A DNA stretch of 64,000 nt from Nocardioidaceae bacterium (GTDB taxonomy: Bacteria > Actinomycetota > Actinomycetes > Propionibacteriales > Nocardioidaceae): the NCBI GenBank assembly GCA_017744365.1, contig JAGIBL010000004.1, forward strand, positions 124,001-188,000, in the 5' to 3' direction. The position numbers and the translations under genes were made by a program. Below are positions 25,560-42,764 of the stretch, piece by piece (the first letter of the stretch is position 1; each line of letters starts with the position of its first letter). A model generated the notes under the pieces. The model ran no database searches and had not been told where the DNA came from. It worked only from the letters and a program-made list of their open reading frames with translations.

Positions 25560-27806
25560 ATGGGGAACGAGACGCCGGTCATCCTGCTCGGCAACAACGC
25601 GGTCTTCGCGCGCGACATCGCCGCGACCAAGCTGATCCGGCCCGACCTCGGCGAGCTGCTCTCGGCGATCAAGCCGCAGACCGGCGAGGACCGCAGCGCG
25701 ATGACGGTCCCGATCTCGCCGTCGGAGACGCCCGACGACCGGATGGTCTACGAGGCCCCGAACGATCCGGCCACCCGCTTCTACCTGCCCTCGTACCGGG
25801 TCGCGACCGTGCGCTCGGGCGCCGGGGAGGAGTTCCGGGTCCGGTTCAGCAAGGGCGCCGCCGGCGCGACCCTCGAGATCGTCCTGGAGCCCTACGCGAC
25901 GCCCGAGGCGCTCCAGGCAGCCCCGGACGCGACCCCGCTGCCGCACACGGTCAGCGCGGTGCTGAACTTCGAGCCGGCCGAGCTTGCCGGCGTACGACGT
26001 GAGCTGGCGTTCACCGAGGTGCAGCAGGTCGAGGGCGGCACCCGGATCGCGCTCACGGTCACCGCGGCCACCGAGATCAGCGACCTGTTCTGGGCGCTGA
26101 CCCGCCCGGAGAACCGGGCTCGCCTGGTGGTCCGGCGGCTGATCGACGTGGCGCTGCCGATGACGGTCACCCGCGAGCGGCCGAAGCCCGGCCGGATCGA
26201 CGTCATCGAGGTGCCGTTCGAGCCGTTGAAGATGGACCCGGTCATCAAGGTCGACCCGCGGATCCTCAAGTTCGAGCCGGTCGAGAAGCCGGACCCGCTG
26301 AACGACCCCGACCCGGTGCTGATCCGGGACATGGTGGTCAAGCCCGAGGTCGCGACACCAGTCTTCGCTCGCCGTACCGGGATGCTCGGCCTGGGCGGCC
26401 GGTTGCGCGACCTGACCAGGATCGGCCGGGTCACCGAAGGCATCGACCTCTCCACCTTGCCCGCCACCAAGCCGGGCACGCCGCCGCCCGCGGGCCCGGG
26501 CGACGAGGTCGAGACGGTGGTGCTCTACCGCCGTACGACGCGCTCGGTCGAGGTGGTGCCGGCGCCGCAGCCGTTCGTGTTCTCGCCCGAGCTGCACGCC
26601 AACGTCTTCTCCGGCGTCACCGCCACCGGCGACCCCGGCGCGCTCGTGCTCGACCAGATCGAGTTCGGCGGCTCCTTCCACTCCTACTACCGCAGCTCGG
26701 CGCGGCCCGAGGTGGCCTACTACCTCCCGGACGCGTTCAAGCTGGCCCGGCTGCCGGAGCGGCCGCGGGCGCCGTTCATGTCGGTGCAGTTCGACTCCTC
26801 CGACGGCACCGTCGAGCACACCACGGCGACCGTCGTGCTCGCCGCCGCGGCCTGGGTGGACCCGGCCCGGCTCGCGGACGCGGCCACCAAGATCGCCGCG
26901 AAGGCCAGCCCGGGCGACCCGCACGCGACCGTGGACCTGCAGCCGCTGGTCGCGGACAGCTCCCGGCTGACCCTGCGGCTGGCGCTGCCCGGCGGCGACG
27001 CCCAGGAGATGCCCGGCGCGGTCATCGACCTGCGCACCGTCCTGCGCGTCGGCTTCGAGGTCCCGCTCGGCCGGTTCCAGCGGCTCTTCGACGCGCTCCA
27101 GGGCGGCGGCGCGGCGATGCTCGGCGGCGAGGTCGAGGTCCGCCTCGACCACCCGGACCGTCCAGCGGAGAAGGTGCCCTTCCAGGCCCGCTTCGACGAT
27201 CTGGCCGGCAACGCGGTCGACCTGACCCTGGCCGCCCGGGCCGGCGGCGACGGCTTCGACGCGGTGCTGCTCAACGCGGCCGAGAGCCCGCTCCGGGTCG
27301 ACGCGGTGCGCGCCTCGGTGGCCGGCACCCCGGTCGCTGTCGAAGGCGTGCCGGCCGCGGACGCGCCGCCGCTGGCGCCGGGTGCCTCGGTCGCGCTGCA
27401 CCTCGGCGGTGCCGGGCGACCCGACGTCGAGGCCGACATCACCGTGCTGCCCGACAAGGACGCGATCTGGGACGCGATCTGCGACGAGACCACCTCGTTC
27501 CTGCAGCGCGAGATCTCGGTGCGCACGCCGGCGGTCATGTTCGACCCGGCCCAGGGCATCCTCGCCATTGCCGTGGAGATCGGCGCCCCCACCGGCGGGC
27601 TCACCTCGACGGTGACCCTCGAGGCCACCACGACCGAGGCGAAGGCGACCGTGCCGCTGCCGTTCGGCGACGTGGTGCTGCGCCGCGAGGACGCCGGCGG
27701 CTACCGCTACCGGGTCACCGCCGTGCGCGCCGACCGGCAGACCGTCTCGGACTGGAAGAGCGGCACCAGCGCGGTGCTGTTCGTGGTGACCGGGGACGTG
27801 GCATGA
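25560..27806 (+). CDS. Unrecognised 748-aa beta-rich protein, first gene of the six-paralog locus
   Basis: 748 aa from the ATG at 25560, preceded by GAGGTGG. I recognise no family. No signal peptide or membrane helix is visible. It contains two copies of the theme seen in the five following genes. One is PATRFYLPSYRVATV...EEFRVRFSKGA near residues 70-110. The other is EVAYYLPDAFKLARLPERP followed by FMSVQFDS near 385-420, matching the YLP-xxx-RLA pattern of the 752-aa protein at 34603. A later stretch (GFEVPLGRFQRLFDALQGG, ~505-520) resembles the second domain of the paralogs. A Pro/charged segment with repeated DPxxxKVDPRILKFEPVEKP lies near 225-265. The stop overlaps the next start (ATGA). 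Confidence 0.75.
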   Translation: MGNETPVILLGNNAVFARDIAATKLIRPDLGELLSAIKPQTGEDRSAMTVPISPSETPDDRMVYEAPNDPATRFYLPSYRVATVRSGAGEEFRVRFSKGAAGATLEIVLEPYATPEALQAAPDATPLPHTVSAVLNFEPAELAGVRRELAFTEVQQVEGGTRIALTVTAATEISDLFWALTRPENRARLVVRRLIDVALPMTVTRERPKPGRIDVIEVPFEPLKMDPVIKVDPRILKFEPVEKPDPLNDPDPVLIRDMVVKPEVATPVFARRTGMLGLGGRLRDLTRIGRVTEGIDLSTLPATKPGTPPPAGPGDEVETVVLYRRTTRSVEVVPAPQPFVFSPELHANVFSGVTATGDPGALVLDQIEFGGSFHSYYRSSARPEVAYYLPDAFKLARLPERPRAPFMSVQFDSSDGTVEHTTATVVLAAAAWVDPARLADAATKIAAKASPGDPHATVDLQPLVADSSRLTLRLALPGGDAQEMPGAVIDLRTVLRVGFEVPLGRFQRLFDALQGGGAAMLGGEVEVRLDHPDRPAEKVPFQARFDDLAGNAVDLTLAARAGGDGFDAVLLNAAESPLRVDAVRASVAGTPVAVEGVPAADAPPLAPGASVALHLGGAGRPDVEADITVLPDKDAIWDAICDETTSFLQREISVRTPAVMFDPAQGILAIAVEIGAPTGGLTSTVTLEATTTEAKATVPLPFGDVVLRREDAGGYRYRVTAVRADRQTVSDWKSGTSAVLFVVTGDVA

Positions 27807-29527
27807 GCCTGCGCGGACTGCCCGACCTCGGTGCTCCGGTCTTCCTGGACGGCGCCCTCGCCGGCTACGCCGGGTTCGAGGACCCGGCGCTGGTGCTGGT
27901 GCCACCGCGACGGCTCCGGCTGGCCCGGCGCGAGGACGGCCGGTACGCGTTCACGATGGAGCGGTTCCGGCCGCGCAACGCGGTCTGGCCCGCGCCGTAC
28001 GGCGTCGTCACCCTGGGCGTGGAGGCGGAGCGTCCCGAGGACGAGGTGCTCGCCGCGGCCCGGGCGGCCGACCCGAACGCCCGGGTGGTGCCGGCGACCC
28101 TGGCCACCGGCACGCTGAGGCTGGCCGGGATGACCCACGCCGCCGACCTGGCCTGGGACGGCATCGGCACCTGCACCTGGAGCGAGCGGCTCACGCCCGA
28201 GGAGATCACCACCCTGCGCGGCGCCGTGCAGGGAGCCTTCCCCGAGATCAGGGCCGACGCCGTCGTCGAGGTGATGGGCGTCCCGGCCCGGCACGACGCG
28301 CGCGTGACGCTCGACCCGCAGGCGCTGTCCACCGCGCTGATCGCACTGCACACCGCACGCGGGCGGGACCTCGCCCGCGCCGACGTGCTCGGGTGGCTGC
28401 GCACCGAGGTGGTCCCCGGCGTCGGCGCGGGCGTCCTGGTCGAGGTCAGGGCGGCTGGGACGCCGCCGGCCGAGGAACAGCTCGCCGAGGCGCTGGCCGA
28501 CCGGATCCGCTCGCGCTGGCGCGGCTGGGTTCCGCCGGTTGCGGAGGCGCCGGGACGCTGGACCTGGGACCTGGCCGAGCCGACCGTGACCTGGCGCGAG
28601 CACCTGCTCACGCTGCCGCTCTTCGACGCGTTCATCGAGATCGCCGCGCACCTGGACGAGCACGAGCCACCCGGCGTCGACCTCGAGCCGGTACCCACCG
28701 GCTGGCGGACCGTCACCGTGCTGGCCAACCTGCCCGGCGACCAGTCCGGCCTGGCCGGCGCCGGCGTGGACATCACCGCGCCGCCGCGACCGCCGGCCCG
28801 GCCGCAGGCGGTCACCGCGACCGTCGAGCTCGCCGCGGACCGGCCGACCGGCACCGCCACCCTGCGGCTCGCGCCCGGCGAGGAGCCCGACTTCGTCCGG
28901 CAGACCTGGGTGGTCGTCGCGGACAGCCAGGGGGTCCGCGAGGTGCGTGGCGCCGAGGTGCCGGTGCACGGCGAGCGGTTCACGCTGCGGCCGGTCGACT
29001 TCCCGCTGCGCTACCTGCGCGTGGACGCCGAGCAGGCGCTGCTCGACCTCGCCAGCGTCCGCCTCGGCCTGCGCCGCACCGACGGCAAGCCCTTCCTCGG
29101 CCAGGACGAGTTCACCGTCGAGCGCCCGCGCGCCGACCTGCCGCTCCCGGCCGACGCGGACGTCGAGGCGCGGGTTCGGATCACCTCCCCGGCCGACGCG
29201 AGCCTCGACCTCGGCCCGTTCGCCACCACGGACCCGCTCTGGCTCGGCCGGCACCTGCTGCCCAGCTGGGGACCGCACGGGATCCAGGTCGGCGGCGGCC
29301 ACGGCGACCTGGTCGCGGTGGCGCTGCGTCCGGAGACCAGCGACGGCGACGGCGAGATCGTCACCCTCACCCGGGCACACCCGGTGCGTACCTGGACCTG
29401 GTTCGCCGACGACCCGTTCCGCGGCGGCTACCAGTTCCGGATCGTGCCCGCCGGTACCGCGCCCGGGCCGTGGTCCGCGGTCCGCCGGTACGACGAGCAG
29501 CTCGACGTCACGGAGGTCCCGGCATGA
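27803..29527 (+). CDS. Unrecognised 574-aa beta-rich protein, second gene of the six-paralog locus
   Basis: 574 aa, ATGA overlap with the gene before and after. No signal peptide, membrane helix or known motif. Near the N-terminus LVPPRRLRLARREDGRYAFT, MERFRP and GVVTLGVEAE follow the same order as the first domain of the genes at 32285 and 34603. The stretch SERLTPEEITTLRGAVQG, followed by VVEVMGVPARHDARVTLDP, corresponds to their second domain (LSxEGAxxLxxA ... VxVxxD). The C-terminal half has beta-sandwich-like strands ending in TWTWFADDPFRGGYQFRI, close to the DDPF/YRYRI signature of the repeat modules. Family relationship is inferred by eye. Confidence 0.72.
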   Translation: MSLRGLPDLGAPVFLDGALAGYAGFEDPALVLVPPRRLRLARREDGRYAFTMERFRPRNAVWPAPYGVVTLGVEAERPEDEVLAAARAADPNARVVPATLATGTLRLAGMTHAADLAWDGIGTCTWSERLTPEEITTLRGAVQGAFPEIRADAVVEVMGVPARHDARVTLDPQALSTALIALHTARGRDLARADVLGWLRTEVVPGVGAGVLVEVRAAGTPPAEEQLAEALADRIRSRWRGWVPPVAEAPGRWTWDLAEPTVTWREHLLTLPLFDAFIEIAAHLDEHEPPGVDLEPVPTGWRTVTVLANLPGDQSGLAGAGVDITAPPRPPARPQAVTATVELAADRPTGTATLRLAPGEEPDFVRQTWVVVADSQGVREVRGAEVPVHGERFTLRPVDFPLRYLRVDAEQALLDLASVRLGLRRTDGKPFLGQDEFTVERPRADLPLPADADVEARVRITSPADASLDLGPFATTDPLWLGRHLLPSWGPHGIQVGGGHGDLVAVALRPETSDGDGEIVTLTRAHPVRTWTWFADDPFRGGYQFRIVPAGTAPGPWSAVRRYDEQLDVTEVPA

Positions 29528-30093
29528 GTACGACCGCCCACCAGGCCCGCTCCCTGCCCGACGGCGCCTATGTCGTCGGCGGCCCCGCCGGGGTCGTCGC
29601 CGTACCGGGGAGGCCGCAGCCGGAGCACGCCGACGCGCCCGCGCTGCAGATCGTCTCGCTCGGTGCGACCGCGATCGTGCAGGCCGGGTTCTGCTGGCCG
29701 GTGCCCGAGAAGCCGGCCCGGCTGGCCCTGAAGGCCGCGCCCGCGGCGCCGTTGCAGAGCGCGGTCACCGACGTGCCCGAGGTCGACCTGGTGCTGCACG
29801 AGCCGGGCGGGCCACGGGTGCTCGCCACCACGACCACGTCCGGCTACCCGCCGTACACCGCGTTGCTCTCGGTCACCGTCGACAGCGCCACCGCCGCCAC
29901 CCTGCAGCGGGCCCTGGACGGAGAGCCCGGCCTGGTCAGCGTGGTCTACCGCGCGCACGCGGACGGGCTGCCGCTCGAGCCCGGTGCCCAACAGCAGTCG
30001 GCCGCCCGTGGGGTGGCCATCGGACAGGACCGCACGGTCACCGCCATCGCCGACGTGTCCGGCTGGGCACGTCACGACAACGAACAGGAATGA
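29524..30093 (+). CDS. Unrecognised 189-aa protein, short paralog in the six-gene set
   Basis: 189 aa with ATGA overlap to the preceding gene and 4 bp to the next. No membrane segment. YTALLSVTVDSATAATLQRA, followed by VSVVYRAHADGLPLEPG, matches the second domain of the larger neighbours (AAFSVQLTQEGVTTLEKAM, IIYSLDYLGLRPAY), so it appears to be a minimal version lacking the C-terminal beta repeats. Its compactness makes it the best minimal unit of the family. Function unknown. Confidence 0.7.
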   Translation: MSTTAHQARSLPDGAYVVGGPAGVVAVPGRPQPEHADAPALQIVSLGATAIVQAGFCWPVPEKPARLALKAAPAAPLQSAVTDVPEVDLVLHEPGGPRVLATTTTSGYPPYTALLSVTVDSATAATLQRALDGEPGLVSVVYRAHADGLPLEPGAQQQSAARGVAIGQDRTVTAIADVSGWARHDNEQE

Positions 30094-30097
30094 AGCC

Positions 30098-32275
30098 ATG
30101 CTCAAGTGGGACGCACCCGAACTGGTCAACGGCATCACGACGTACTGGGACGACACCGACATCGCGACCGCCTACCTGCTGCCGAAGACGGCCAGGTTCC
30201 GCCTCGACGACGAGGGCAACCCGGTCTTCAAGTTCATGAAGTACAAGTTCCCGATCGACCGCGCCGACGGGAAGAAGGGCGGCGGCTTCCTGGTCTGCGA
30301 CGTCGCCTTCGGCGTCACCAAGGAGGACCAGGACGCGCTGCGCGACCCGCTGCAGGAGCGGGTCAACGAGCGCTGGCGCCAGGCCGGTCACGCCGACGCC
30401 GCGCCGGCCGTCCGGTTCGGCGAGCTCAGCTACCTGCGCGGCACCGCGTCGGTGACGATCCTCGACTCCGGCGGCGCCCTGGTCGAGAAGGTGCACAACC
30501 CGGCCAGCCCGTCGCTGTACGGCGACATGATCCTGCCGATCACGGTCGAGCTCTCCCCGGAGGGCGCCACCCTGCTGGAGTCCGCGCTGCAGGCCAAGGG
30601 CGGCATCGTGCAGGTGTCGTACGACATCTGGACGCCGGTCAAGCTGCCGCCGCTGACCGCGCACGTGTGGTTCAACGCCTCGAAGTTCTCCTTCTTCCAC
30701 CAGCACATCGACGTGGAGGAGAACTTCTGCGCCGAGGACGACTACACCGAGTCGATCACCGACCTGATCGTGCAGAGCGACGCGGGCGGCGTGAAGATCG
30801 ACCCCGGCACCGTCACCGACCAGAAGGTCATCTCGGCGGTCACCGACTGGGCCTGGTCCGCGCTGGCCGACGCCACCACCCGGATGGTGCTCGGCGACGT
30901 GCCGGTGCAGAACCCGGAGGAGATCCGCAAGCTCTACACCGAGCAGGACTTCGAGAACATCGACATGACGGTGATGACCACCCGGCTGGTCAACTTCGAC
31001 CGCACCTTCACCCAGGACCAGGTGATGGAGTGGAACCCGCAGCCGCGCGGCACCATCCCCAACATCACCTCGATGAAGGGCCCGGACGGCGAGCCCTACA
31101 AGTGGGCGGACTTCGCCACCACCGTCGACCTCGACGACCCGTTCTTCCGGACGATGACCGTCAAGACCCGGGTCAACGCGGACTTCGAGAAGCTGCCGCT
31201 GCACAGCGTCGAGGTGAAGATCGAGTACGACAACGCCGGCGACAAGAAGGTCGAGGAGTACCCGCTCACCAACGCCAACGACGTCGGCACGTTCACCTCG
31301 TTCGTCGCCAACAACAACCGGCGCTACACCTACACCTACCAGGTCAACTACAAGGGCGAGGCGCAGGCGTTCACCTCCGAGCCGAAGGTCGCCAACGACC
31401 CCTCGCTCATCATCAACGTCGGCGACATCGGCATCCTGGACGTCGACATCAAGCCGGGCGACCTCAACTTCGACCAGGTCAAGAGCGCTCAGGTGAGCCT
31501 CTGGTACGAGGACAACGGGCTGCCCCGGCTGGAGACCTCGGTGACCCTCGACAAGGACCACACCGAGGCCACCTGGACCAAGGTGATCTTCCAGCCGCGG
31601 CGGCAGCCGGTGCACTACCAGGTCAAGTACTTCATGACCGACGGCCGCGAGTTCGAGGGCGGCGAGCGGACCACGGCCTCGACCGAGCTGCGGATCAACG
31701 ACCCGTTCGGCTCCACCCGGACCGTGCAGGTGCGGGGCTTCGGCCTCAACGACGACCACATCGACGCGATCTTCGTGGACCTCTCGTACGTCGACACCGT
31801 CAACGACTTCACCCAGACCAGGTCGATCACGCTGACCAAGGAGTCCTCGTTCGAGGACTGGGTGTTCCCGGCGATCCTGGCCGACGGCGGCACGCTGACG
31901 TACTCGGGGAACATCCGGTTCGCCGACGGCACCGTGGAGGCGATCCCGACCACGCCGGTCGAGGGCACCACCGTGATGGTCGGCGACGTCGTGCTGACCC
32001 AGCCGATCGCGGTGATGGCCGACCTGGTCGACTTCGCCACCACCAAGCTGGTGAAGGTCTCGCTGCACCACGTCGAGGACAAGCTCGACGAGACCGAGGA
32101 CCTGGTCTTCAAGGACGGCGCCCCGACCACCGGGGTCTGGGCGATGCCGTTCAAGGACAAGACCAAGAAGTCGTACTCGTGGAAGGCGACCTACTTCAAG
32201 GCCGACGGCAGCAACGCCACCGTCGAGGGCCACGACGTCACCGACGAGACGCTGGTCCTGCCGGCGCACGCGTGA
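30098..32275 (+). CDS. Unrecognised 725-aa modular beta protein, paralog of the next two genes
   Basis: 725 aa. Domain 1 (~1-110) contains TAYLLPKTARFRLDDEG and GGGFLVCDVAF. Domain 2 (~130-310) has SPSLYGDMILPITVELSPEG and LPPLTAHVWFN. After MEWNPQPRG a VDLDDPFFRTMTV segment leads into about four modules of ~95-105 residues. Each runs V-x-V, an xVxLxY strand, a W, then YxYxVxYxxxDG and often DPF. There is no signal peptide and no Cys-rich or catalytic motif. The modules look like beta-sandwich (Ig/FnIII-like) domains, by pattern only. Composition is Asp- and Lys-rich. Confidence 0.78.
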   Translation: MLKWDAPELVNGITTYWDDTDIATAYLLPKTARFRLDDEGNPVFKFMKYKFPIDRADGKKGGGFLVCDVAFGVTKEDQDALRDPLQERVNERWRQAGHADAAPAVRFGELSYLRGTASVTILDSGGALVEKVHNPASPSLYGDMILPITVELSPEGATLLESALQAKGGIVQVSYDIWTPVKLPPLTAHVWFNASKFSFFHQHIDVEENFCAEDDYTESITDLIVQSDAGGVKIDPGTVTDQKVISAVTDWAWSALADATTRMVLGDVPVQNPEEIRKLYTEQDFENIDMTVMTTRLVNFDRTFTQDQVMEWNPQPRGTIPNITSMKGPDGEPYKWADFATTVDLDDPFFRTMTVKTRVNADFEKLPLHSVEVKIEYDNAGDKKVEEYPLTNANDVGTFTSFVANNNRRYTYTYQVNYKGEAQAFTSEPKVANDPSLIINVGDIGILDVDIKPGDLNFDQVKSAQVSLWYEDNGLPRLETSVTLDKDHTEATWTKVIFQPRRQPVHYQVKYFMTDGREFEGGERTTASTELRINDPFGSTRTVQVRGFGLNDDHIDAIFVDLSYVDTVNDFTQTRSITLTKESSFEDWVFPAILADGGTLTYSGNIRFADGTVEAIPTTPVEGTTVMVGDVVLTQPIAVMADLVDFATTKLVKVSLHHVEDKLDETEDLVFKDGAPTTGVWAMPFKDKTKKSYSWKATYFKADGSNATVEGHDVTDETLVLPAHA

Positions 32276-32284
32276 GGACCGGTC

Positions 32285-34585
32285 ATGCTCTATCTCGAAG
32301 CTCCGTTCCACGTGATCGAGGGGGTCGCGGTCTTCCGCGACCACGCCGATCCGCAGCAGTGGTACGCGATGCCCGGCGCGCCGCGGCTGGTCACGGTCAA
32401 GGAGACCGTCGCCGGCCAGGAGGTCGAGGTCCCGCAGCTGTCGCTCATCAAGTTCAAGGGCAACGCCGGTACCGGCGGCTTCCTGAACTTCGACGTCGAC
32501 CTGGCGCTGCCCGACGAGCTGCGCGACGACGTACGGACTGAGATCAAGCGGCTCGAGCACCTGCCGGACCTGCCGCGGCTGGCGGACCTGCAGGTGGTCG
32601 ACGGCACCGTCCGGATGATGCTCTTCGACAAGGAGAGCCCGCTGCCCGCGCCGGCCGGCGGGGGAGGCGGCCAGCCTGCTCCGGCGCCGAAGCCCGAGGA
32701 GGAGCTGCTCCAGTTCGTGCTCAAGCTCAGCCACGCCGCCAAGCCCGCCCTGTACGGCAGCCAGCGGGCCGCGTTCTCGGTGCAGCTGACCCAGGAGGGC
32801 GTGACCACGCTGGAGAAGGCGATGGCCGGCGAGCTGTCCCCGATCGGGATCATCTACTCGCTGGACTACCTCGGCCTGCGCCCGGCGTACCACGTCCAGG
32901 TGCACGTGGACTGGGAGCGGGTGCAGAAGCACATCGACGAGCACGAGGAGTTCAACGTCCCGCTGTTCTACTCCTCGACCGTCGACAAGGTGCTCGACGA
33001 GCTGGAGGACAAGCGGATCATCCAGATCACCGCGGACACCTTCGTCGAGGAGGAGGACGGCAGCCCGGTGATCGCCCGCCGCGACCAGGCGATGGACGAG
33101 GTCCGGGACATGATCACCGACGCGTTCTTCGAGCCGTCGCTGGACCCGGTCGACCGCGGCGCCGGCGCCGCCGGTGCGGTGCAGACCTTCGGGCGGGTGC
33201 TGCGCGCGATCGGCAGCGGCGGGATGTCGGAGTTCAACGCGTTCAGCCGGCGCAAGGTCGACCTGACCCGGATCGACAAGAAGCGGCTGGACGTCTCGAT
33301 GAGCGAGCGCACCACCGTACGACGGACGATCTACCCGCAGGGGCACCTGTCGGGGCTGTTCCGGGTGCTGCGCGACGCGGGCCTGGACATGAGCCGGTTC
33401 GTCACCGAGGTGGACCTGGACGACCCCTGGTTCGAGCGCCGCAACGTCGAGCTGGTCTCGCGCGCCGAGTGGGTGCGCGACGGGATCCGCTCGGTCGACG
33501 TGGACCTGGACTACCGCGGCAAGGAGACCAGCAAGCTGCTGGACAAGGACACCGTCAAGGAGACGATGTCGTGGTCCAGCGTGCTCGAGAACGGCGGCAT
33601 GGTCCGCGACGTCGAGGTCGGCTACACGGTCAACTTCGCCGACGTGGATGCCGGCGAGCGGCCGCGCTCGCTGACCTCGAAGGCCAGCATCGAGAAGGGC
33701 GACCGGATCGAGATCGACCCGCGCGAGCTCTACTCGCTGGTGCCGGTCCCGGTGGTGGCACTGAGCTTCCCGTGGGAGCGGTACCCCGACGTCGAGGTCG
33801 AGGTCGCGTACGACGACCCCGGCAACGGCATCGCGCAGTCCGACGTGGTCGTCCTCGGCAAGGACAAGACCGACGACACCTGGTCGATGTTCGTGGTCGA
33901 CCCGGAGCTGGACACCTTCCGCTACCGGATCACCTACCGGGCCGCCGACCAGCGCGACGTCGTCGGGGACTGGGTGAGCACCGACGGCGAGCGGATCATC
34001 GTGCGCGACCCGTTCCCGTCCGGCCGCATCCTCGAGGTGGTCCCGGCGGTCGACTGGACCGAGGTGCTGCGGGTCTTCGTCGACGTCTCCTACACCGACG
34101 CCGAGCACGGCCTGCACGCCGAGGACTCCTTCGAGTTCACCGAGAGCCAGGCCACCACCCAGACCTTCGCGGTGGCGCTGGCGGACCCGGCCCGGCGCGT
34201 CGTCGACTACCGGGTCACGGTGATGAAGAAGAACGGCGAGACCGTCGTCGGGCCGCCGAGCTCCACCCAGGAGCGCCGGGTGATCGTCCGCGCCGACGTG
34301 GCCGGCCACCGGGTGGTCACGGTGCGCACCGACGGCGGCGACTTCGCCGCGCACAAGATCCGCAAGATGACGGTCAAGCTGCACTACGACGACCCGGTCA
34401 CCAAGGTCGACGACGAGCGCACCCTGACCTCCGCCGCCGACGTGGCCGTCTTCGAGTTCGACTTCGTCGCCGGCGGCCCCGACCACTTCGACTACGAGGT
34501 GGTCACCGAGTTCACCAACAACCTGACCAAGACCCGGACCGGGGAAGGACGCGAGTCCACGCTCGTCGTCCCGGTCCAGGGCTGA
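32285..34585 (+). CDS. Unrecognised 766-aa modular beta protein, paralog of 30098 and 34603
   Basis: 766 aa. Domain 1: VIEGVAVFRDHADPQQWYAM, then LIKFKG and GGFLNFDVDL. A Gly/Pro linker (~120-140) follows. Domain 2: KPALYGSQRAAFSVQLTQEG ... LGLRPAYHVQVHVDW. Then RRTIYPQG and FVTEVDLDDPWFERRNVELV open about four ~95-residue modules, each with xVxVxVxYxD, a YRITY/YRVTV strand and a terminal DPFPSG-type turn. The first domain is nearly collinear with that of the 752-aa gene (HADP ... LP ... GGGF). No signal peptide or membrane helix. It starts 9 bp after the preceding stop. Confidence 0.78.
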   Translation: MLYLEAPFHVIEGVAVFRDHADPQQWYAMPGAPRLVTVKETVAGQEVEVPQLSLIKFKGNAGTGGFLNFDVDLALPDELRDDVRTEIKRLEHLPDLPRLADLQVVDGTVRMMLFDKESPLPAPAGGGGGQPAPAPKPEEELLQFVLKLSHAAKPALYGSQRAAFSVQLTQEGVTTLEKAMAGELSPIGIIYSLDYLGLRPAYHVQVHVDWERVQKHIDEHEEFNVPLFYSSTVDKVLDELEDKRIIQITADTFVEEEDGSPVIARRDQAMDEVRDMITDAFFEPSLDPVDRGAGAAGAVQTFGRVLRAIGSGGMSEFNAFSRRKVDLTRIDKKRLDVSMSERTTVRRTIYPQGHLSGLFRVLRDAGLDMSRFVTEVDLDDPWFERRNVELVSRAEWVRDGIRSVDVDLDYRGKETSKLLDKDTVKETMSWSSVLENGGMVRDVEVGYTVNFADVDAGERPRSLTSKASIEKGDRIEIDPRELYSLVPVPVVALSFPWERYPDVEVEVAYDDPGNGIAQSDVVVLGKDKTDDTWSMFVVDPELDTFRYRITYRAADQRDVVGDWVSTDGERIIVRDPFPSGRILEVVPAVDWTEVLRVFVDVSYTDAEHGLHAEDSFEFTESQATTQTFAVALADPARRVVDYRVTVMKKNGETVVGPPSSTQERRVIVRADVAGHRVVTVRTDGGDFAAHKIRKMTVKLHYDDPVTKVDDERTLTSAADVAVFEFDFVAGGPDHFDYEVVTEFTNNLTKTRTGEGRESTLVVPVQG

Positions 34586-34602
34586 CGCTCGAAGGAGGAG
34601 CC

Positions 34603-36861
34603 ATGCTGCTGCTGGGAAGCCGATCGATCACGGTCGAAGGCATCACCGTCTTTCCCGACCACGCCGACCCGGACCAGTTCTGGTACCTGCCCGGCCCGGT
34701 CCGGCTCGCCGACCGCGCCGACGGCCAGAAGGCGTTCACGTTCATCGAGTACCGGCCGGCCGCGGTTGCCGGCGGCGCCAAGGGCGGTGGGTTCGTCACC
34801 TTCCAGGTCGACCTCAAGCTCGACAAGGCACTGGAGCGGCGGATCATGTCCCGGCTGCGCTCGGTCGCCAAGGGCACCCCGCGGCTGACCGTGGTGCCCT
34901 TCGACGAGGGCACCGTCCAGTGTGTCGCGCTCAACCTGCAGGGCGAGGGTGGCGTGGCCGCGCAGCCGGCCGGTCCCGGCTCGTTCAACGCCGTCGAGCA
35001 GATCCTCGGCGCCGGGGTGCCCTCGCTGCAGGGCGACAACACCGCGGCGTTCAGCCTGACGCTCTCCCAGGAGGGCGCGGTGATCCTGCGCAAGGCGTTC
35101 GAGCAGGGCACCACGCCGGTCGGGGTCATCTACGACCTCAAGTTCACCGGGATGCGTCCGGCGCTCAACGTCGAGATCACCGCGGACCTGAGCCGCGTCT
35201 ACGACCAGCTCAGCGGGGGCGTCGAGGCGCAGGTGTACTTCGTCAAGGCGGGCATCGACGCGGCCTTCGAGAAGCTCGTCCAGGACGGCGCGATCAAGAT
35301 CAAGGTCATCGACTTCACCGGCGAGGACGACGAGAAGGAGAAGGAGCGCTGGGCGCTCGACTTCTTCAAGGAGAACCTCCTGCGGCAGTGGTTCGAGCCG
35401 ACGCTGGCGCCCGGGGTGATCTCCGGCGGGCGTCCCGAGCCCGAGCCTCTGGCGGCCGTCCTGGCCCGCGGCAACGCGATGCGGCCGGCCACCACGCCGG
35501 CACCGCCGCGGCCCGCGGCCGCACCCGAGCCGGCCGCCCCGCGGGAGACGTCCCCGGCGGCCGGCACCGGTCAGGGCGCTGCTCCGGCCGGGCACAACCC
35601 GACGCCGCCGCCGGCCGGCGCGCACCCGGACACCCCGCCGACCGCGGGCACCGGTGCGCCGGCCGCCTCGGACGCGGTCGCCCCGGCGGCCGCGGTGGGC
35701 GCGCCCCGGGTGGCCCCGGCCTCCACGCCCGCGACCACGCCGCCCGCCGGGCTGAACAGCCAGCCCGCGGCCGGTGCGGGCGGCATCCCGGCGGTGGTCT
35801 CGTTCAAGCTGCGCATCGTCCACCAGGAGGAGCGCAAGACGGTCAAGGTCACCTACGACCGGTCCGAGGCGACCCAGCGGACCTACGCCCCGCAGGGCTT
35901 CTTCGGGGTGCTGGTCGCCGACCTGGACAAGTCCAAGCACTTCGTCGAGGTGGACCTGGACGACCCGTTCTTCCGGGTGTTCAAGGTCCAGGTGGATCCG
36001 CCGACCGACTACGCCGCGATCGGGCTGCGCACCGCGCAGGTCTCCCTCGAGTACGGCGACCCGGCGGACCCGGCGACGCTCAAGGTCAAGGAGCTCACCT
36101 TCGACGCCGACGACAAGGACGCCGGCGTCTGGGAGGTCTTCCTCGACCACGACCTGGACCTGTCCTACCGGGCCGGCGTGCAGTTCCACTTCGACCCGGC
36201 CTCGGAGTGGAAGGGCGACAAGTTCACCTACGAGCTGGCCCCTGCCGTCACCGAGGACCGGTCGCTGGTGCTCAACGCGCACGAGCTGGTCGGCTTCCTC
36301 GACGTCCAGGTGCAGGCCAACAAGGTCGACTGGAAGGTGGTCGACTCGATCGACGTCTTCCTGCGCCACCAGAGCAACGGCACCGTCCAGGACGAGCAGC
36401 TGCTGCTCACCGCGCAGGAGCCCGGGCCGAAGGCGTGGAAGGTGCGCACCGACGTGGGCGCCCGCGAGTACACCTACCGGTTCGTGCACCACCTCAAGGA
36501 CGGCACCACCCGGGAGACGGTGAGCACCGAGCCGTCGCGGGCCGCGCTGCTGCCGGTCGACGACCCGTTCCCCGGCGAGCTCGCCCTCGAGTTCGTGCCG
36601 CTGCTGGACGCCACCCGCACCAAGCTCGCGTTCGTCGACGTCGACTACGCCGACGCGGCCAACGGCTACACCCGCGAGGAGCGGCTGACGATCAAGCCGA
36701 CCGACACCGACCCGGTCCAGCTCGGGCTCGCGCTGATGGACCCGAAGAAGAAGGACTACCGCTACCAGATCACCCTCGTCGGCACCGACAACCACATGAC
36801 CAAGCTGCCGCCGGTCGAGACCACCGACGACCTCGTGGCCGTCAGCGAACCCATCGCGTAA
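34603..36861 (+). CDS. Unrecognised 752-aa modular beta protein with Ala/Pro-rich hinge
   Basis: 752 aa with a strong GGAGGAG before the ATG. Domain 1: ITVEGITVFPDHADPDQFWY, LP, FIEYRPA and GGGFVTFQVDLKL. Domain 2: VPSLQGDNTAAFSLTLSQEG ... GVIYDLKFTGMRPALNVEIT. An Ala/Pro/Thr-rich, likely disordered stretch of ~100 residues (~285-395) is unique to this paralog. After it, TYAPQGFFG and FVEVDLDDPFFRVFKVQV open three ~100-residue beta modules ending KKDYRYQITLVGTDN. The caspase-like gene starts 11 bp after its stop, with a ribosome binding site overlapping that stop. The flexible hinge is a natural candidate site for proteolysis, but that is inference. Confidence 0.78.
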   Translation: MLLLGSRSITVEGITVFPDHADPDQFWYLPGPVRLADRADGQKAFTFIEYRPAAVAGGAKGGGFVTFQVDLKLDKALERRIMSRLRSVAKGTPRLTVVPFDEGTVQCVALNLQGEGGVAAQPAGPGSFNAVEQILGAGVPSLQGDNTAAFSLTLSQEGAVILRKAFEQGTTPVGVIYDLKFTGMRPALNVEITADLSRVYDQLSGGVEAQVYFVKAGIDAAFEKLVQDGAIKIKVIDFTGEDDEKEKERWALDFFKENLLRQWFEPTLAPGVISGGRPEPEPLAAVLARGNAMRPATTPAPPRPAAAPEPAAPRETSPAAGTGQGAAPAGHNPTPPPAGAHPDTPPTAGTGAPAASDAVAPAAAVGAPRVAPASTPATTPPAGLNSQPAAGAGGIPAVVSFKLRIVHQEERKTVKVTYDRSEATQRTYAPQGFFGVLVADLDKSKHFVEVDLDDPFFRVFKVQVDPPTDYAAIGLRTAQVSLEYGDPADPATLKVKELTFDADDKDAGVWEVFLDHDLDLSYRAGVQFHFDPASEWKGDKFTYELAPAVTEDRSLVLNAHELVGFLDVQVQANKVDWKVVDSIDVFLRHQSNGTVQDEQLLLTAQEPGPKAWKVRTDVGAREYTYRFVHHLKDGTTRETVSTEPSRAALLPVDDPFPGELALEFVPLLDATRTKLAFVDVDYADAANGYTREERLTIKPTDTDPVQLGLALMDPKKKDYRYQITLVGTDNHMTKLPPVETTDDLVAVSEPIA

Positions 36862-36872
36862 GGAGAAACGAC

Positions 36873-37754
36873 ATGACCAAGCGAGCCGTCGTCATCGGCA
36901 TCAACGACTACTCGGTGCAGGGGTTCGGCAACCTGGGCGGCTGCGTCCGGGACGCCGACGCCATGTACCACCTGCTCATCGACGCGTTCCTGTTCGACCC
37001 GTCGCAGGTGTTCATCTACAAGAACCAGCAGGCCAGCTACAACAACATCATGAAGGGCCTGAACTACATCCTGAAGGCCTCCGAGCCCGGGGACGTGGCG
37101 TGCTTCTACTACGCCGGCCACGGTGGCCTGCATCCGACGAGCACCGCGGGCACCTACTACCAGACGATCATCCCGGCCTCGGGCCAGTTCATCACCGACT
37201 TCGAGCTGCGCCAGGCCGCCGACCAGCTGCGGCCCTCCGAGGTGAACTTCACGGTGATCCTGGACAGCTGCCACTCCGGCGGGATGATCGACCCGGCCAC
37301 GCCGGTCGGGGACGTGCGCACCATCGCGCTGGCCCAGCAGTTCATCACCACCGCGACCAACACGATGAAGACGGTGATCCCGTTCGGCGTCGCGGTCCCG
37401 GACATCGCCACGATGAGCAACAACATCCACCAGGTGGCGCCGGCTCCGCCGGCCTCGGTCTGCTACACCGAGGCGGCCAACCGCGAGTTCGTGGCCTCGG
37501 CGAAGGCGACCCTGCTCGCGGCCTCGCGCTGGGACGAGTACGCCGGCGAGACCAGCGACCACGGGTTCCTCACCAAGGCGATCCTGGACACGGTCAACGC
37601 CAGCAACTTCCAGGTCACCCACCAGGCGCTGCACTCGACGCTGACCACCAAGGTGCACGCGCTGGCCAACCACGAGCAGCACCCGGTGCTGCGCGGCCAG
37701 CAGAACCGGATGAGCGAGAAGTTCCTCAACGGCTGGACCACCTCGGTGCCGTAA
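36873..37754 (+). CDS. Caspase-like (C14, metacaspase-type) peptidase
   Basis: 293 aa. RAVVIGINDY, CFYYAGHGG and VILDSCHSGG give the caspase-fold strands with catalytic His83 and Cys133. The acidic pocket of metacaspases, which cleave after Arg or Lys, cannot be judged securely. The protein is a bare protease domain without NTPase, TPR or signal peptide, ending in NGWTTSVP. It sits 11 bp after the 752-aa modular protein with an AAGGAG overlapping the upstream stop, so it belongs to the same transcript. In other bacteria such peptidases are executioners in abortive-infection or programmed-death systems or process partner proteins. Its regulator and substrate here are unknown. Confidence 0.9.
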   Translation: MTKRAVVIGINDYSVQGFGNLGGCVRDADAMYHLLIDAFLFDPSQVFIYKNQQASYNNIMKGLNYILKASEPGDVACFYYAGHGGLHPTSTAGTYYQTIIPASGQFITDFELRQAADQLRPSEVNFTVILDSCHSGGMIDPATPVGDVRTIALAQQFITTATNTMKTVIPFGVAVPDIATMSNNIHQVAPAPPASVCYTEAANREFVASAKATLLAASRWDEYAGETSDHGFLTKAILDTVNASNFQVTHQALHSTLTTKVHALANHEQHPVLRGQQNRMSEKFLNGWTTSVP

Positions 37755-37762
37755 CGGATAGC

Positions 37763-38587
37763 GTGCCGCGGGTGAGCTTCGTCCTGGTCGAGCGGCCCGT
37801 GCCCGAGGTCGCCGTGGTGACCCTCAACCGCCCGGAGCGGATGAACGCGATGGCGTTCGACGTGATGGTGCCGTTCCGCGACCAGCTGGTCGCGCTCGGC
37901 CACGACAACACGCTCCGGGCGGTGGTGGTCACCGGCGCCGGGCGCGGGTTCTGCTCCGGGGCGGACCAGGAGTCCGCGGGAACGCCGCCGCACGTCGAGG
38001 GGCTGACCCGTCCGACGTACGCGCTGCGCTCGATGGAGATGCTCGAGGACATCACCCTGACGCTGCGCCGGCTGCACCAGCCGGTGATCGCCGCGGTCAA
38101 CGGTGCCGCCATCGGGGGCGGGCTCTGCCTGGCGCTGGCCTGTGACATCCGGATCGCCGCGCCGGAGGCGTACTTCCGCGCGGCCGGGATCAACAACGGC
38201 CTGACCGCCAGCGAGCTCGGGCTGTCCTACCTGCTGCCCCGCGCGATCGGGTCCTCGCGCGCCGCCGAGATCATGCTGACGGGACGAGACGTCTCGTCTC
38301 GCGAGGCCGAGCGGATCGGCCTGGTGAGCGAGGTCGTCGAGGATCCCGGGACCGACGTGGTGGCCCGCGCCGTCGAGATCGGGCAGCGGATCGCCGGCTT
38401 CTCCCAGCCCGGCGTCGAGCTCACCAAGCGCACCCTGGTCACCGGCCTGGACGCCTCCTCGCTGGAGGGGCACATGGCCGCCGAGGGTCTGGGCCAGCTC
38501 TACCTGCGCATCCTCACCGACAACTTCGAGGAAGCCACCCGGGCGCGCAAGGAGGGGCGCCCGCCGCGGTTCAGCGACACCCGCTAG
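37763..38587 (+). CDS. Enoyl-CoA hydratase/isomerase family protein
   Basis: 274 aa from GTG at 37763 (GTG at 37772 is an alternative). Crotonase-fold landmarks: VVTGAGRGFCSGADQ (CoA oxyanion-hole region), VIAAVNGAAIGGGLCLALAC (second oxyanion Gly) and LLPRAIGSSRAAEIMLTG. The two Glu of a classical hydratase are not evident in the usual places: the active-site stretch reads AAGINNGLTASELGLSYLL. Another crotonase activity is therefore possible. It begins only 8 bp after the caspase-like gene. This could mean it is part of the locus or an older housekeeping gene that the locus surrounds. Confidence 0.85.
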   Translation: MPRVSFVLVERPVPEVAVVTLNRPERMNAMAFDVMVPFRDQLVALGHDNTLRAVVVTGAGRGFCSGADQESAGTPPHVEGLTRPTYALRSMEMLEDITLTLRRLHQPVIAAVNGAAIGGGLCLALACDIRIAAPEAYFRAAGINNGLTASELGLSYLLPRAIGSSRAAEIMLTGRDVSSREAERIGLVSEVVEDPGTDVVARAVEIGQRIAGFSQPGVELTKRTLVTGLDASSLEGHMAAEGLGQLYLRILTDNFEEATRARKEGRPPRFSDTR

Positions 38588-38693: not shown

Positions 38694-39761
38694 ATGAGCC
38701 GGAACCTCGTTCTCTGCCTGGACGGCACCAGCAACGAGCCCGAGACCGGTGCCACCAACGTGGCCCGGATCTACGACCTGGCCGGCAAGGACGCCGACCA
38801 GCTCTGCTACTACGACCCGGGCGTGGGCACCATGGGCGCGCGCAGCGCCACCACCCGCACCGGCAAGGCGCTGACGCGCACGGCCGGCCTGGTGGTCGGC
38901 TTCGGCATCCGCGACAACATCGAGGAGGCCTACACCTGGCTGATGAACACCTACCGCGCGGGCGACCGGGTGATGGTGTTCGGGTTCAGCCGGGGGGCCT
39001 ACACGGCGCTCGCGCTGACCGGGATGCTGCGCACGGTCGGGCTGCTCCGCCCCGGCGCGGAGAACCTGGTGCCGTACGCGCTCAAGCTCTACGCCAAGAA
39101 CGGCCGGCGCGACCTGAGCGAGGACGAGGAGAAGGCGTTCTGGGCGCAGCGCGCCGGGTTCGCCGACTCCTTCGGCAACCCGGACTTCGAGCGGTTCGCC
39201 CACAACGTCGCGTTCCTGGGCCTGTGGGACACGGTGAAGTCGGTGGGCTGGCTCAACGCCAAGGCCCGCTTCGAGCAGGCGCACTGGCCCTTCACCCGCA
39301 AGGTCTCCAACGTGGCCGTCGGCCAGCACGCGATGTCGCTGGACGAGAACCGCGGCCCGTTCGCGGCCTACCGGTTCGACCCCGACCAGGTGGCCGAGCG
39401 GGACGGCGCGCTCGAGGAGCTCTGGTTCCCCGGCGTGCACAGCGACGTCGGCGGCCAGTACGCCGACCACCGGCTCTCCGACCTCGCGCTGACCTGGATG
39501 GCCGGCGAGGCGGCGAAGGCGGGACTGGCCGTGGACGCCGCCCGCTACACCGAGCTGCTCGGCGTCGCCCCCGGGATGGCACTGCCGGCGTCGTACGCGA
39601 TCGAGGGGAAGATCCACCGGCACCCGTGGCCGTGGGTGCTCGCCGGCCCCGGCTGGCGGCCGCGCAAGCCGCGGCCCGGCGACGGCTTCCACGAGTCGGT
39701 GCAGCAGCGGATCGACGGCACTGCCGGGACCGCCCGGCCCTACCGCCCGAAGGGGATCTGA
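38694..39761 (+). CDS. DUF2235 alpha/beta hydrolase (Tle1-like phospholipase fold)
   Basis: 355 aa. NLVLCLDGTSNEPETGATNV at the start, VFGFSRGAYTAL with nucleophile Ser99, FLGLWDTVKSVG (Asp) and PGVHSDVGGQY (His) give the full DUF2235 signature. Members include the Tle1 lipase effectors of type VI secretion. There is no signal peptide, transmembrane tail or secretion adaptor domain, so it would act in the cytosol unless exported by an unseen route. It starts 106 bp after the enoyl-CoA hydratase and one base separates it from the metallopeptidase gene, so the last three genes form a tight unit. Confidence 0.88.
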   Translation: MSRNLVLCLDGTSNEPETGATNVARIYDLAGKDADQLCYYDPGVGTMGARSATTRTGKALTRTAGLVVGFGIRDNIEEAYTWLMNTYRAGDRVMVFGFSRGAYTALALTGMLRTVGLLRPGAENLVPYALKLYAKNGRRDLSEDEEKAFWAQRAGFADSFGNPDFERFAHNVAFLGLWDTVKSVGWLNAKARFEQAHWPFTRKVSNVAVGQHAMSLDENRGPFAAYRFDPDQVAERDGALEELWFPGVHSDVGGQYADHRLSDLALTWMAGEAAKAGLAVDAARYTELLGVAPGMALPASYAIEGKIHRHPWPWVLAGPGWRPRKPRPGDGFHESVQQRIDGTAGTARPYRPKGI

Positions 39762-41463: not shown

Positions 41464-42764
41464 GCAAGCCAGTCAAGGTCCGGGTGCGGATGTACCAGGT
41501 CGGCTTCGGGGACTGCTTCCTGGTCTCCGTGGAGTACGACAAGCCGCTGCCCGACGGACGAGCCGAGCGGCACCTGCTCATCGACTACGGCTCGACGCGG
41601 GCCGCGCGCGAGGGCCGGGCGCCGGGGAAGATGCGCGACGTCGCGCCGCTGATCGAGAAGCACACCAGCGGCGTGCTCGACGTGCTGGCGCTGACCCACC
41701 GGCACAAGGACCACCTGTTCGGGTTCGCCGACGACACCGGGGATGCGACCCTGCGGCGGCTCGACCCCAAGCTGGTGCTGCGTCCGTGGACCGAGGACCC
41801 GGACCTGCAGACCGACGCCACCGGACCCGGTGCCGCGCTCGTCGGTGCGGCGTCGGCCTCGTTCGCGGCCAGCCTGGCCGGCGCGCAGGCGGCGGCCGAG
41901 CGGCTCTCCACCCGGGCCGGCCTGCACGAGGACGTGCTCGCCGCCGCTGCCGAGCAGGTCAAGAACCCCGAGGCGATCAAGCTGCTCGACGACCTGGCGG
42001 CGGCCGGGGAGGGGCGCTACCTGTTCGCCGGTGCCGATCCGGACGTGACCAAGACCGTGCCCGGGCTGAAGGTCACCGTGCTCGGCCCGCCGACCGTCGA
42101 CCAGGACCCGCGGGTGAGCAAGCAGCGCGAGGACGACGAGGACGAGTACTGGATGCTGCGGCTGCGCGCGTCGCTCGACTCCGCTGCCGGTGCCGCCGCG
42201 GAGGGTGCTGTCGCGACCTGCGACGTGGACCTCGGCCCGGGTCCGGTGCGCTGGCTGGTCGACCGGCTCGCCGACCAGCGCGACCACTCCGCGGCGCGGC
42301 TGGTCCGGCACCTCGACGACGCCCTCAACAACACCAGCCTGGTGCTGCTGCTCGAGATCGGCGGCCTCAAGCTCCTCTTCCCGGGTGACGCCCAGATCGA
42401 GAACTGGCAGTACACGCTGGAGAAGCTCGGCGAGGAGAAGGAGCTGCGCGAGAAGCTGCGCGACATCGACCTCTACAAGGTCGGCCACCACGGCAGCCGC
42501 AACGCCACCCCGCGGTCGCTGCACGCGCTCTGGAAGGAGCGCCCGGCGACCCTGCCCGCGCTGACCATCCTGATGTCGACCCGCCCCGGCGTGCACGGGG
42601 AGAGCGAGGCCACCCGGGTGCCCAGGCAGACGCTGGTCGATGCGCTCGAGGAGGTCGGCACGCTGTACTCGACCGACGACCTGGTGGAGAAGGAGACGTA
42701 CGTCGAGGTGGAGGCGGACGTGACCGGGGGGCCGTTCCGGCAGGTGCCGTTCGTCGCCGGATGA
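41460..42764 (+). CDS. Metallo-beta-lactamase-fold hydrolase (ComEC-like MBL branch)
   Basis: 434 aa from GTG. YQVGFGDCFLVSV and HLLIDYGS open the fold. THRHKDHLFG gives the HxHxDH motif at residues 80-85, LLFPGDAQIENW supplies the bridging Asp, and YKVGHHGSRNATP the later His pair. This combination matches the soluble MBL branch related to the ComEC C-terminal domain, whose members are often found with effectors in bacterial conflict operons. An insertion of ~150 helical or acidic residues (~110-260) lies between the HxHxDH motif and the late motifs. The start overlaps the peptidase stop. Substrate unknown; nuclease or phosphodiesterase activity is typical of the fold. Confidence 0.85.
   Translation: MSKPVKVRVRMYQVGFGDCFLVSVEYDKPLPDGRAERHLLIDYGSTRAAREGRAPGKMRDVAPLIEKHTSGVLDVLALTHRHKDHLFGFADDTGDATLRRLDPKLVLRPWTEDPDLQTDATGPGAALVGAASASFAASLAGAQAAAERLSTRAGLHEDVLAAAAEQVKNPEAIKLLDDLAAAGEGRYLFAGADPDVTKTVPGLKVTVLGPPTVDQDPRVSKQREDDEDEYWMLRLRASLDSAAGAAAEGAVATCDVDLGPGPVRWLVDRLADQRDHSAARLVRHLDDALNNTSLVLLLEIGGLKLLFPGDAQIENWQYTLEKLGEEKELREKLRDIDLYKVGHHGSRNATPRSLHALWKERPATLPALTILMSTRPGVHGESEATRVPRQTLVDALEEVGTLYSTDDLVEKETYVEVEADVTGGPFRQVPFVAG

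What the first reader, a model, noticed from the sequence alone, without database searches (positions are those of the whole stretch)
30098..36861. About eleven copies of a ~100-residue beta module across three adjacent paralogs
Seen: after the N-terminal domains, the 725-, 766- and 752-aa proteins carry four, four and three modules with the recurring order V-x-V ... VxVxLxY ... W ... YxYxVxY-xxDG ... DPF. Clear examples are VDLDDPFFRTMTV, VDLDDPWFERRNVELV and VDLDDPFFRVFKV at the first module, and the RINDPFG, VRDPFPSG and VDDPFPG turns. Inference: gene duplication plus module duplication built a beta-sandwich array, which may be filamentous or adhesive although no export signal is seen.
Basis: seen in the sequence. 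Interest (0 to 1): 0.75.

Follow-up and report, generated by a model that had tools for sequence, protein, structure and literature searches.

The report
Six-gene Ig-module operon with caspase
Three neighbouring bacterial proteins really do carry eleven copies of an immunoglobulin-like building block, and they turn out to be half of a widespread, apparently undescribed six-gene operon that probably builds a scaffold inside the cell for swappable enzymes, here a caspase-like protease.

Summary
The repeat is real: 4+4+3 modules of about 90-113 residues, above shuffled controls; only E1 fails the hardest test. An AlphaFold model of the 725-aa protein shows four beta units of 7-8 strands; the structural matches are Ig/FN3-like but middling (Z 5.6-7.2). 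The genes lie in a tight run, 25560-38587, whose first six genes (A-F) are paralogs sharing an N-terminal domain. Proteins matching D, E and F best occur together at 48 of 52 loci from at least six phyla. Next to F the enzyme varies: a caspase here and at 7 of 52 loci, a DMATS-type prenyltransferase at 25 (followed by a terpene-cyclase-like toroid at 7), a PLD at 3. Modules match better by position than by protein, so the array predates the D/E/F split. Hydropathy shows no export signal; adhesion is unlikely. No Pfam, NCBIfam or PADLOC family fits A-F. Best reading: a cytosolic hetero-oligomeric scaffold that positions or gates swappable enzymes. Complex formation and cellular role (effector system or biosynthesis) are unproven.

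The parts
25560..27806 (+). gene A, 748 aa: N-domain-like stretch at aa 370-506, one module at aa 667-742
   Evidence: gene call (13); hhalign to N-domain prob 86, E 5e-6 (95); module HMM E 1.2e-5 (59)
27803..29527 (+). gene B, 574 aa: N-domain plus diverged modules
   Evidence: hhalign to N-domain prob 97.5, E 8.4e-12 (96); to whole D prob 95 (97); module HMM only weak (59)
29524..30093 (+). gene C, 189 aa: N-domain only, no module found
   Evidence: hhalign to N-domain prob 99, E 6.8e-18 (94); no module match (59)
30098..32275 (+). gene D, 725 aa: N-domain plus four Ig-like modules
31118..31420 (+). module D1
31430..31708 (+). module D2
31712..31987 (+). module D3
31997..32266 (+). module D4
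32285..34585 (+). gene E, 766 aa: N-domain (aa 1-380 modelled) plus four modules
33404..33721 (+). module E1 (weakest)
33737..34015 (+). module E2
34019..34294 (+). module E3
34307..34576 (+). module E4
34603..36861 (+). gene F, 752 aa: N-domain, Pro/Ala-rich linker (about aa 275-400), three modules
35944..36282 (+). module F1
36295..36570 (+). module F2
36574..36849 (+). module F3
36873..37754 (+). caspase-like protease (Peptidase_C14), His and Cys motifs intact (AGHGG at aa 81, DSCHSG at aa 131); 11 nt after F
   Evidence: PF00656 69.7 bits, cut-off 21.4 (24); motifs and spacing (109)
37772..38587 (+). enoyl-CoA hydratase family protein, 17 nt after the caspase; not seen at relatives
   Evidence: PF00378 E 1.7e-45 (24)
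38694..39761 (+). Tle1-like (DUF2235) hydrolase, GFSRG motif; linkage to the system not shown
   Evidence: PF09994 E 9.3e-73 (14)
39763..41463 (+). putative M4-like metallopeptidase with HETTH; linkage not shown
   Evidence: PF01447 E 0.0073, below cut-off (14)
41457..42764 (+). MBL-fold protein with HRHKDH, partly like defence-system MBLs; linkage not shown

Best explanation
Genes A-F encode a cytosolic complex of six paralogous subunits. Each has a version of one N-terminal domain, followed by zero to four Ig-like modules; F also has a Pro/Ala-rich, probably disordered linker. I infer that the N-domains form the assembly core and the module arrays are arms that hold and position an enzyme encoded next to F. 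In this genome that enzyme is a caspase-like protease; at other loci it is replaced or joined by a DMATS-type prenyltransferase, a terpene-cyclase-like toroid, a PLD and others. For the window I think it most likely that the scaffold keeps the caspase in check until a signal comes and then targets it, so the system works as a swappable-effector (conflict or cell-fate) platform. Shown: paralogy, modules, conserved gene order, a caspase of the same family at 7 of 52 loci, intact active-site motifs. Inferred: operon transcription, complex formation, cytosolic site, gating, conflict role.
For: Six paralogs: hhalign C 99%, B 97.5%, A 86% against the N-domain of D/E/F, B also along whole D (97); the N-domain of E folds confidently as a model, pLDDT 85, pTM 0.75. 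Tight co-directional run: gaps -4, -4, 4, 9, 17, 11, 17 nt from A to the hydratase. Best matches to D, E and F together at 48 of 52 loci from Actinomycetota, Bacillota, Nitrospirota, Acidobacteriota, Chloroflexota and Pseudomonadota. Module number kept: 4 in 59 of 73 D-like, 4 in 45 of 55 E-like, 3 in 39 of 48 F-like proteins over 450 aa. Caspase of one family at 7 of 52 loci, in two separate parts of the D tree. The enzyme beside F varies while the core stays. MBL and caspase of the window partly match defence profiles; in L007 an annotated EAD1 protein and an AAA/STAND-like ATPase lie just upstream of the array. No hydrophobic export signal.
Against: No interaction between any of these proteins has been shown. 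The commonest partner is a prenyltransferase-like protein (25 of 52 loci), not a known defence effector. No NTPase is part of the recurring set that I identified: besides core and enzymes, the most widespread other cluster (cluster 3, 10 loci, scattered, not examined) is the only one above 7 loci. At 24 of 52 loci neither caspase nor DMATS-like gene was seen; some are contig ends, but at least seven (L014, L018, L027, L035, L042, L045, L048) have other genes after F. The hydratase, Tle1-like, M4-like and MBL genes have no counterpart among called genes at the relatives, so they may be passengers. Cut-offs for EACC1-type caspase, Avs1a and 6A-MBL are far from met. pTM of full D is 0.46, so the arrangement of the arms is unknown. 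All six labels A-F occur together at only 14 of 52 loci, partly because loci are cut.
Confidence: 0.42

Rival explanations
1. Biosynthetic or protein-modifying complex: the scaffold organises prenyl transfer and cyclisation (DMATS-type enzyme plus terpene-cyclase-like toroid), and the caspase is a maturation or regulatory protease.
For: DMATS-like gene directly after F or after the caspase at 25 of 52 loci, a toroid after it at 7, plus a squalene-hopene-cyclase-like protein after it at L046 (below cut-off); profile matches CymD and other DMATS chains, E 1.5e-4; invariant W, K-x-Y, R and E-x-Y positions; DxDDTA-like motif in the toroid.
Against: The window has neither enzyme beside the core, and its genome shows no match to one DMATS-like relative (which shows little by itself). 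No further gene cluster other than cluster 3 (10 loci, not examined) recurs above 7 loci, so no set of tailoring genes was seen to travel with the core. At 24 of 52 loci neither caspase nor DMATS-like gene was seen.
Confidence: 0.27
2. Multi-component toxin or delivery system: A-F form a complex that carries hydrolases or pore-formers to other cells.
For: One Azospirillum plasmid locus pairs a single D-like protein and a DMATS-like protein with an HBL-family protein and two further proteins of unknown family, one of them weakly HBL-like; Tle1-like and PLD enzymes are often exported effectors (recalled); 16 of 41 F-like proteins carry an insert with weak profile similarity to OmpA-like peptidoglycan-binding domains (PA0833 E 0.003, YfiB and YiaD E 0.011-0.017).
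Against: No gene resembling a secretion machine was identified in the window's run; no export signal by hydropathy; one such locus only; Pfam calls the insert OmpA in 0 of 16, and the top PDB match to that profile was another protein (uS2m, E 0.00017), probably by low complexity (107).
Confidence: 0.15
3. Adhesive or filamentous surface array.
For: Tandem Ig-like modules; structural rows include pilins and adhesins.
Against: No export signal by hydropathy, no C-terminal sorting motif visible in D, E or F (read by eye), short arrays (mostly 3-5 modules), partners are enzymes.
Confidence: 0.07

Closest known systems
Ig-like / FN3-like modular arrays (pilins, adhesins, transglutaminase C-domains)
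   Same: Tandem beta modules of 7-8 strands and about 90 residues; Z 5.6-7.2
   Different: No export signal; encoded with paralogs sharing an N-domain that had no PDB match at E <= 0.001
Modular effector systems with caspases (vWA-MoxR, EACC1 and related systems; Kaur et al. 2020, PMC7159879, and PMC8195603; only passages around my search terms were seen)
   Same: Conserved core with exchangeable effectors, caspase and trypsin among them
   Different: Core is six Ig-module paralogs without an NTPase; the term 'prenyltransferase' occurs 0 times in either text
DMATS-type aromatic prenyltransferases (CymD, PriB)
   Same: The partner gene at 25 loci matches their profile over most of its length
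   Different: 256-348 aa against 360-441 in the matched prenyltransferase chains (67); product unknown; absent beside the window's core
Defence MBL proteins (Avs1a, LmuA, 6A-MBL)
   Same: MBL motif and partial profile matches in 41457-42764
   Different: Far below the NCBIfam cut-offs (40 against 420 bits, 35.4 against 220)

Membership tests
Ig-like / FN3-like module | About 90-residue beta sandwich of 7 or more strands | tested here: met
   four units of 7-8 strands in the D model, pLDDT 82-95 per ten residues from aa 351 on except the last block (78); matches Z 5.6-7.2, middling
Ig-like / FN3-like module | Strand topology 3+4 or 4+3 in two sheets | not testable with these tools
   no coordinates returned
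Surface adhesin or pilin | Export signal or membrane segment | tested here: not met
   highest 19-residue hydropathy 1.06-1.66 in D/E/F; no hydrophobic N-terminus; hydropathy only, no dedicated signal predictor
Peptidase C14 (caspase fold) | Profile score and His-Cys motifs | tested here: met
   69.7 bits against 21.4; AGHGG and DSCHSG
EACC1-associated caspase (NF047832) | Curated score cut-off | tested here: not met
   51.1 bits against 140
AVAST type 1 Avs1a | Curated score cut-off | tested here: not met
   40 bits against 420
6A-MBL defence enzyme | Curated score cut-off | tested here: not met
   35.4 bits against 220
Lamassu LmuA | PADLOC profile plus LmuB partner | tested here: inconclusive
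   LmuA E 2.8e-18 without a cut-off; no LmuB match among the ten proteins scanned
Tle1-like phospholipase catalytic domain | Profile score and GxSxG | tested here: met
   245.5 bits against 27; GFSRG
Peptidase M4 | Profile score | tested here: not met
   17.2 bits against 22.4, though HETTH is present
DMATS-type prenyltransferase (relatives' gene) | Family profile similarity | tested here: met
   CymD E 1.5e-4, further DMATS chains E 2.7e-4 and 0.0075; no Pfam prenyltransferase match for the two scanned
DMATS-type prenyltransferase (relatives' gene) | Prenyl transfer to an aromatic acceptor | not tested
   -
Class II terpene cyclase (relatives' toroid gene) | Family profile match | tested here: inconclusive
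   DxDDTA-like motif; ent-CPP synthase over aa 68-96 only, E 0.037; no Pfam match for L020
OmpA-like domain (insert in some F proteins) | Pfam OmpA match | tested here: not met
   0 of 16 in Pfam; weak PDB profile matches to PA0833, YfiB and YiaD

The most novel reading that the evidence does not exclude
A horizontally spread bacterial machine of a new kind: six Ig-module paralogs form a hetero-oligomeric cage or ring with the caspase or prenyltransferase/cyclase as exchangeable cargo; the caspase is released or switched on when F's disordered linker is cut, giving bacteria a caspase-activating platform unrelated to STAND or gasdermin systems.
Probability: 0.15. Interest if true: 0.88.

Novelty: categorically new. 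Interest (0 to 1): 0.66.

Why it matters
A conserved set of six paralogous genes, found in at least six phyla and without a usable match in Pfam, NCBIfam or PADLOC, is a testable and apparently undescribed molecular system. If the scaffold gates a caspase in one lineage and a prenyltransferase in another, it would be a new way in which bacteria plug unrelated enzymes into one chassis, and it would link prokaryotic caspases to an Ig-module assembly.

Tried and rejected
Family look-ups of A-F gave nothing usable: Pfam (D and F were given there as longer reading frames; one chance-level match, GlgB_N in D, E 0.12), NCBIfam and PADLOC (none at E <= 1), PHROGs (only chance-level matches in A, B, D and F, none in E, C not scanned). 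PDB sequence searches with E found none at E <= 1, with the D profile only E 0.15. The N-domain model had no PDB match at E <= 0.001 by Foldseek (best 0.058) and Z <= 5.2 by VIA-align; this does not show that the fold is new. VIA rows there align 83-121 residues over a span of about aa 26-376, which made me think of an Ig-like sandwich split around an insert; the output gives only first and last residues, so this is a guess. Viral contigs and phages held no relative of the query at the sensitivity used. A single-sequence scan of genome contigs with E found none; the alignment scan found 53 loci. Gene A found no plasmid match. Filing under EACC1 caspase, Avs1a or 6A-MBL was rejected on cut-offs. 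Counting the hydratase, Tle1-like, M4-like and MBL genes as core parts was rejected: no homologue among called genes at the relatives. Tle1-like proteins are common on plasmids (77 records).

Rows dropped and limits: L062 had no training match and was left out of the gene calls (45), so counts are over 52 of 53 loci (89). L008, L016, L055 and L060 were left out of the order listing (110). The D tree holds 38 rows chosen by score and length (123). The module profiles use only proteins with the standard module number and, for relatives, a score of at least 240 bits. Labels A-F at relatives are best blastp matches to the window proteins at E <= 0.001, weak for C (often 32-50 bits); one search prints 'in order' but tests presence only (order was read from 51 and 110). 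The 52 loci were found by a pattern near the start of F-like proteins, so F's frequency is partly by construction and loci without the pattern are missed. Gene calls at the loci are my own simple codon-usage calls. Enzyme counts are lower bounds where contigs end.

Literature: eight searches listed no description of this operon; PMC7159879 and PMC8195603 were seen only as passages around my terms. The library lacks most subscription papers.

Full report
What was checked. The finding covers three genes, named D, E and F here: 30098-32275, 32285-34585 and 34603-36861. I cut eleven modules by their motifs and tested each against a profile of the others: each of the 11 beat 500 shuffles of itself. 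In the stricter test, in which all modules of the same position were left out of the profile, 10 of 11 beat all 300 shuffles; E1 did not, with 7.8 bits and 2 of 300 shuffles as high.

Fold. AlphaFold on D with 40 homologous rows (alignment A3) gave mean pLDDT 84.7 and pTM 0.46; the secondary structure shows four successive units of 8, 8, 7 and 7 strands. Foldseek and VIA-align bring up Ig-like and FN3-like domains of pilins, adhesins, transglutaminases, receptors and complement proteins over about aa 350-716, with Z 5.6-7.2 in the 50 rows shown. That is middling, so I claim an Ig-like sandwich and not closeness to any one family.

Order of duplication. Profiles for the eleven positions, from 33-39 proteins each, were compared with each other. 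Mean scores are 83 for the same position in different proteins, 50 for different positions in one protein and 53 for neither. The array was therefore most likely built before D, E and F separated. Some cross-position pairs are also high (F2 with D4, E3 with D4), and position 1 is weaker (E1 with F1 42-43), so the inner history of the array is not resolved.

More than three paralogs. Profile comparison ties gene C (189 aa) to the N-domain of D/E/F with probability 99, gene B with 97.5, and a stretch of gene A with 86; B also aligns along D through the modules, and A ends in one module. Thus 25560-36861 holds six paralogs: in C no module was found, and D, E and F carry 4, 4 and 3. The N-domain of E was modelled alone with 98 rows (pLDDT 85, pTM 0.75). 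It has no strong PDB match. One viral protein, from Medusavirus stheno, matches it with E 2.2e-6 and TM 0.30.

Operon. From A to the hydratase at 37772-38587 the spacing is -4, -4, 4, 9, 17, 11 and 17 nt. A TetR gene ends 89 nt upstream of A. The Tle1-like gene follows after 106 nt, then the M4-like and MBL genes at 1 and -7 nt. Active-site motifs of caspase, Tle1-like, M4-like and MBL proteins are present. The own genome shows no further copy of the system outside this locus for gene F or the N-domain profile.

Relatives. tblastn found homologous arrays on plasmids of Pararhizobium and Paracoccus, a single D-like gene in Azospirillum and a partial match in Paraburkholderia. An alignment-based scan of genome contigs gave 53 loci; 52 could be gene-called. 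By best match D was seen at 50, E at 51, F at 50, all three at 48; A at 26, B at 25, C at 27, all six at 14. Another family (cluster 4) occurs at 12 loci; in Streptomyces and Microbacterium it stands beside the array where A is missing, but its kinship to A was not tested. Flanks were limited to 10 kb and contigs are often short. Module numbers hold: 4 in 59 of 73 D-like (5 in 10), 4 in 45 of 55 E-like and 3 in 39 of 48 F-like proteins. The D tree (38 rows) puts the window with Micropruina (100/100), next to Paenibacillus and Cohnella (100/99) and then two Acidobacteriota (99/95), away from Streptomyces; I read this as horizontal spread.

The enzyme place. Next to F, 7 of 52 loci carry a caspase of the window's family. 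At 25 of 52 a protein of 256-348 aa, whose profile matches DMATS-type prenyltransferases (CymD E 1.5e-4), follows F or the caspase; four loci have both. Seven of the 25 are followed by a protein with a DxDDTA-like motif of class II terpene cyclases (PDB profile match E 0.037), and an eighth (L046) by a squalene-hopene-cyclase-like protein below the Pfam cut-off. Three Paracoccus loci (and L007, outside the 52) carry a PLD inside the array; L007 also has a tyrosinase and a trypsin at its far end, and an annotated EAD1 protein and an AAA/STAND-like ATPase upstream. L007 24313-26409 looks by eye like a toroid fused to a DMATS-like part (Pfam only E 0.076). In Nitrospira and Hydrogenophaga the order is F, caspase, a second F, DMATS, toroid. 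At 24 of 52 loci neither caspase nor DMATS-like gene was seen, and at least seven of these have other genes after F.

F linker. Between the N-domain and F1 there is a Pro-, Ala- or Gly-rich stretch that varies widely between relatives; in 16 of 41 F-like proteins it holds an extra domain flanked by simple repeats, with weak profile matches to PA0833, YfiB and YiaD and a Pfam OmpA call in 0 of 16.

Function. Hydropathy gives no export signal or membrane segment in A-F, and the linked enzymes look cytosolic (inference). The simplest reading of a constant set of paralogs with exchangeable neighbours is a scaffold with a cargo place. For the window, a caspase plus a defence-like MBL argue for a conflict or cell-fate role; for many relatives, prenyltransferase plus cyclase argue for chemistry. 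I favour the swappable-effector platform (0.42) over biosynthesis (0.27), toxin delivery (0.15) and adhesion (0.07). Nothing here proves that the proteins touch each other.

Novelty. No Pfam, NCBIfam or PADLOC family fits A-F, and eight literature searches in an open-access library listed no description. The modules are a known kind of domain; the six-paralog core with an exchangeable enzyme is, as far as tested, not a member of a described system, hence 'categorically new', with the caution that its function is unknown and that most subscription papers could not be searched.

Noticed in passing
L009 14430-21161 (Azospirillum lipoferum 4B plasmid AZO_p5): A lone D-like protein and a DMATS-like protein sit behind an HBL-family protein (PF05791 E 2.2e-12) and two further proteins of unknown family, on an IS-rich stretch of a plasmid.
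   Followed up: partly
BFVD A0A7S7YF07 (Medusavirus stheno) against window 32285-33424: An uncharacterised giant-virus protein is the only BFVD structural match to the N-domain model with E below 0.001 (2.2e-6).
   Followed up: no
window 42829-43538: A secreted-looking protein whose reading frame appears broken: a signal-like start in one frame, the rest in another (by eye). Possibly a pseudogene or a sequencing error.
   Followed up: no
L016, L055, L060 (Cohnella faecalis contigs): The operon appears in inverted, fragmented copies on single contigs, which may be an assembly artefact or decayed duplicates.
   Followed up: no
L006 12320-14988 and L035, L042, L045, L048: In Rhizobiales and one Anaerolineae locus two unknown genes (about 294-308 and 568-588 aa) stand between E and F; the larger has, by eye, a Gly-Thr-Cys stretch and a late His like a cysteine peptidase, but no Pfam match.
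   Followed up: partly
F proteins of L012-L054, between N-domain and first module: Linker simple repeats such as (TP)n, (PVTP)n, (PQ)n and (NP)n differ between close Lysobacter relatives, a sign of fast length change.
   Followed up: partly
L008 (Paraburkholderia sp. PGU19 plasmid), 22744-22845: A 102-base stretch is labelled GIM-2 beta-lactamase by a predictor; far too short for the gene.
   Followed up: no
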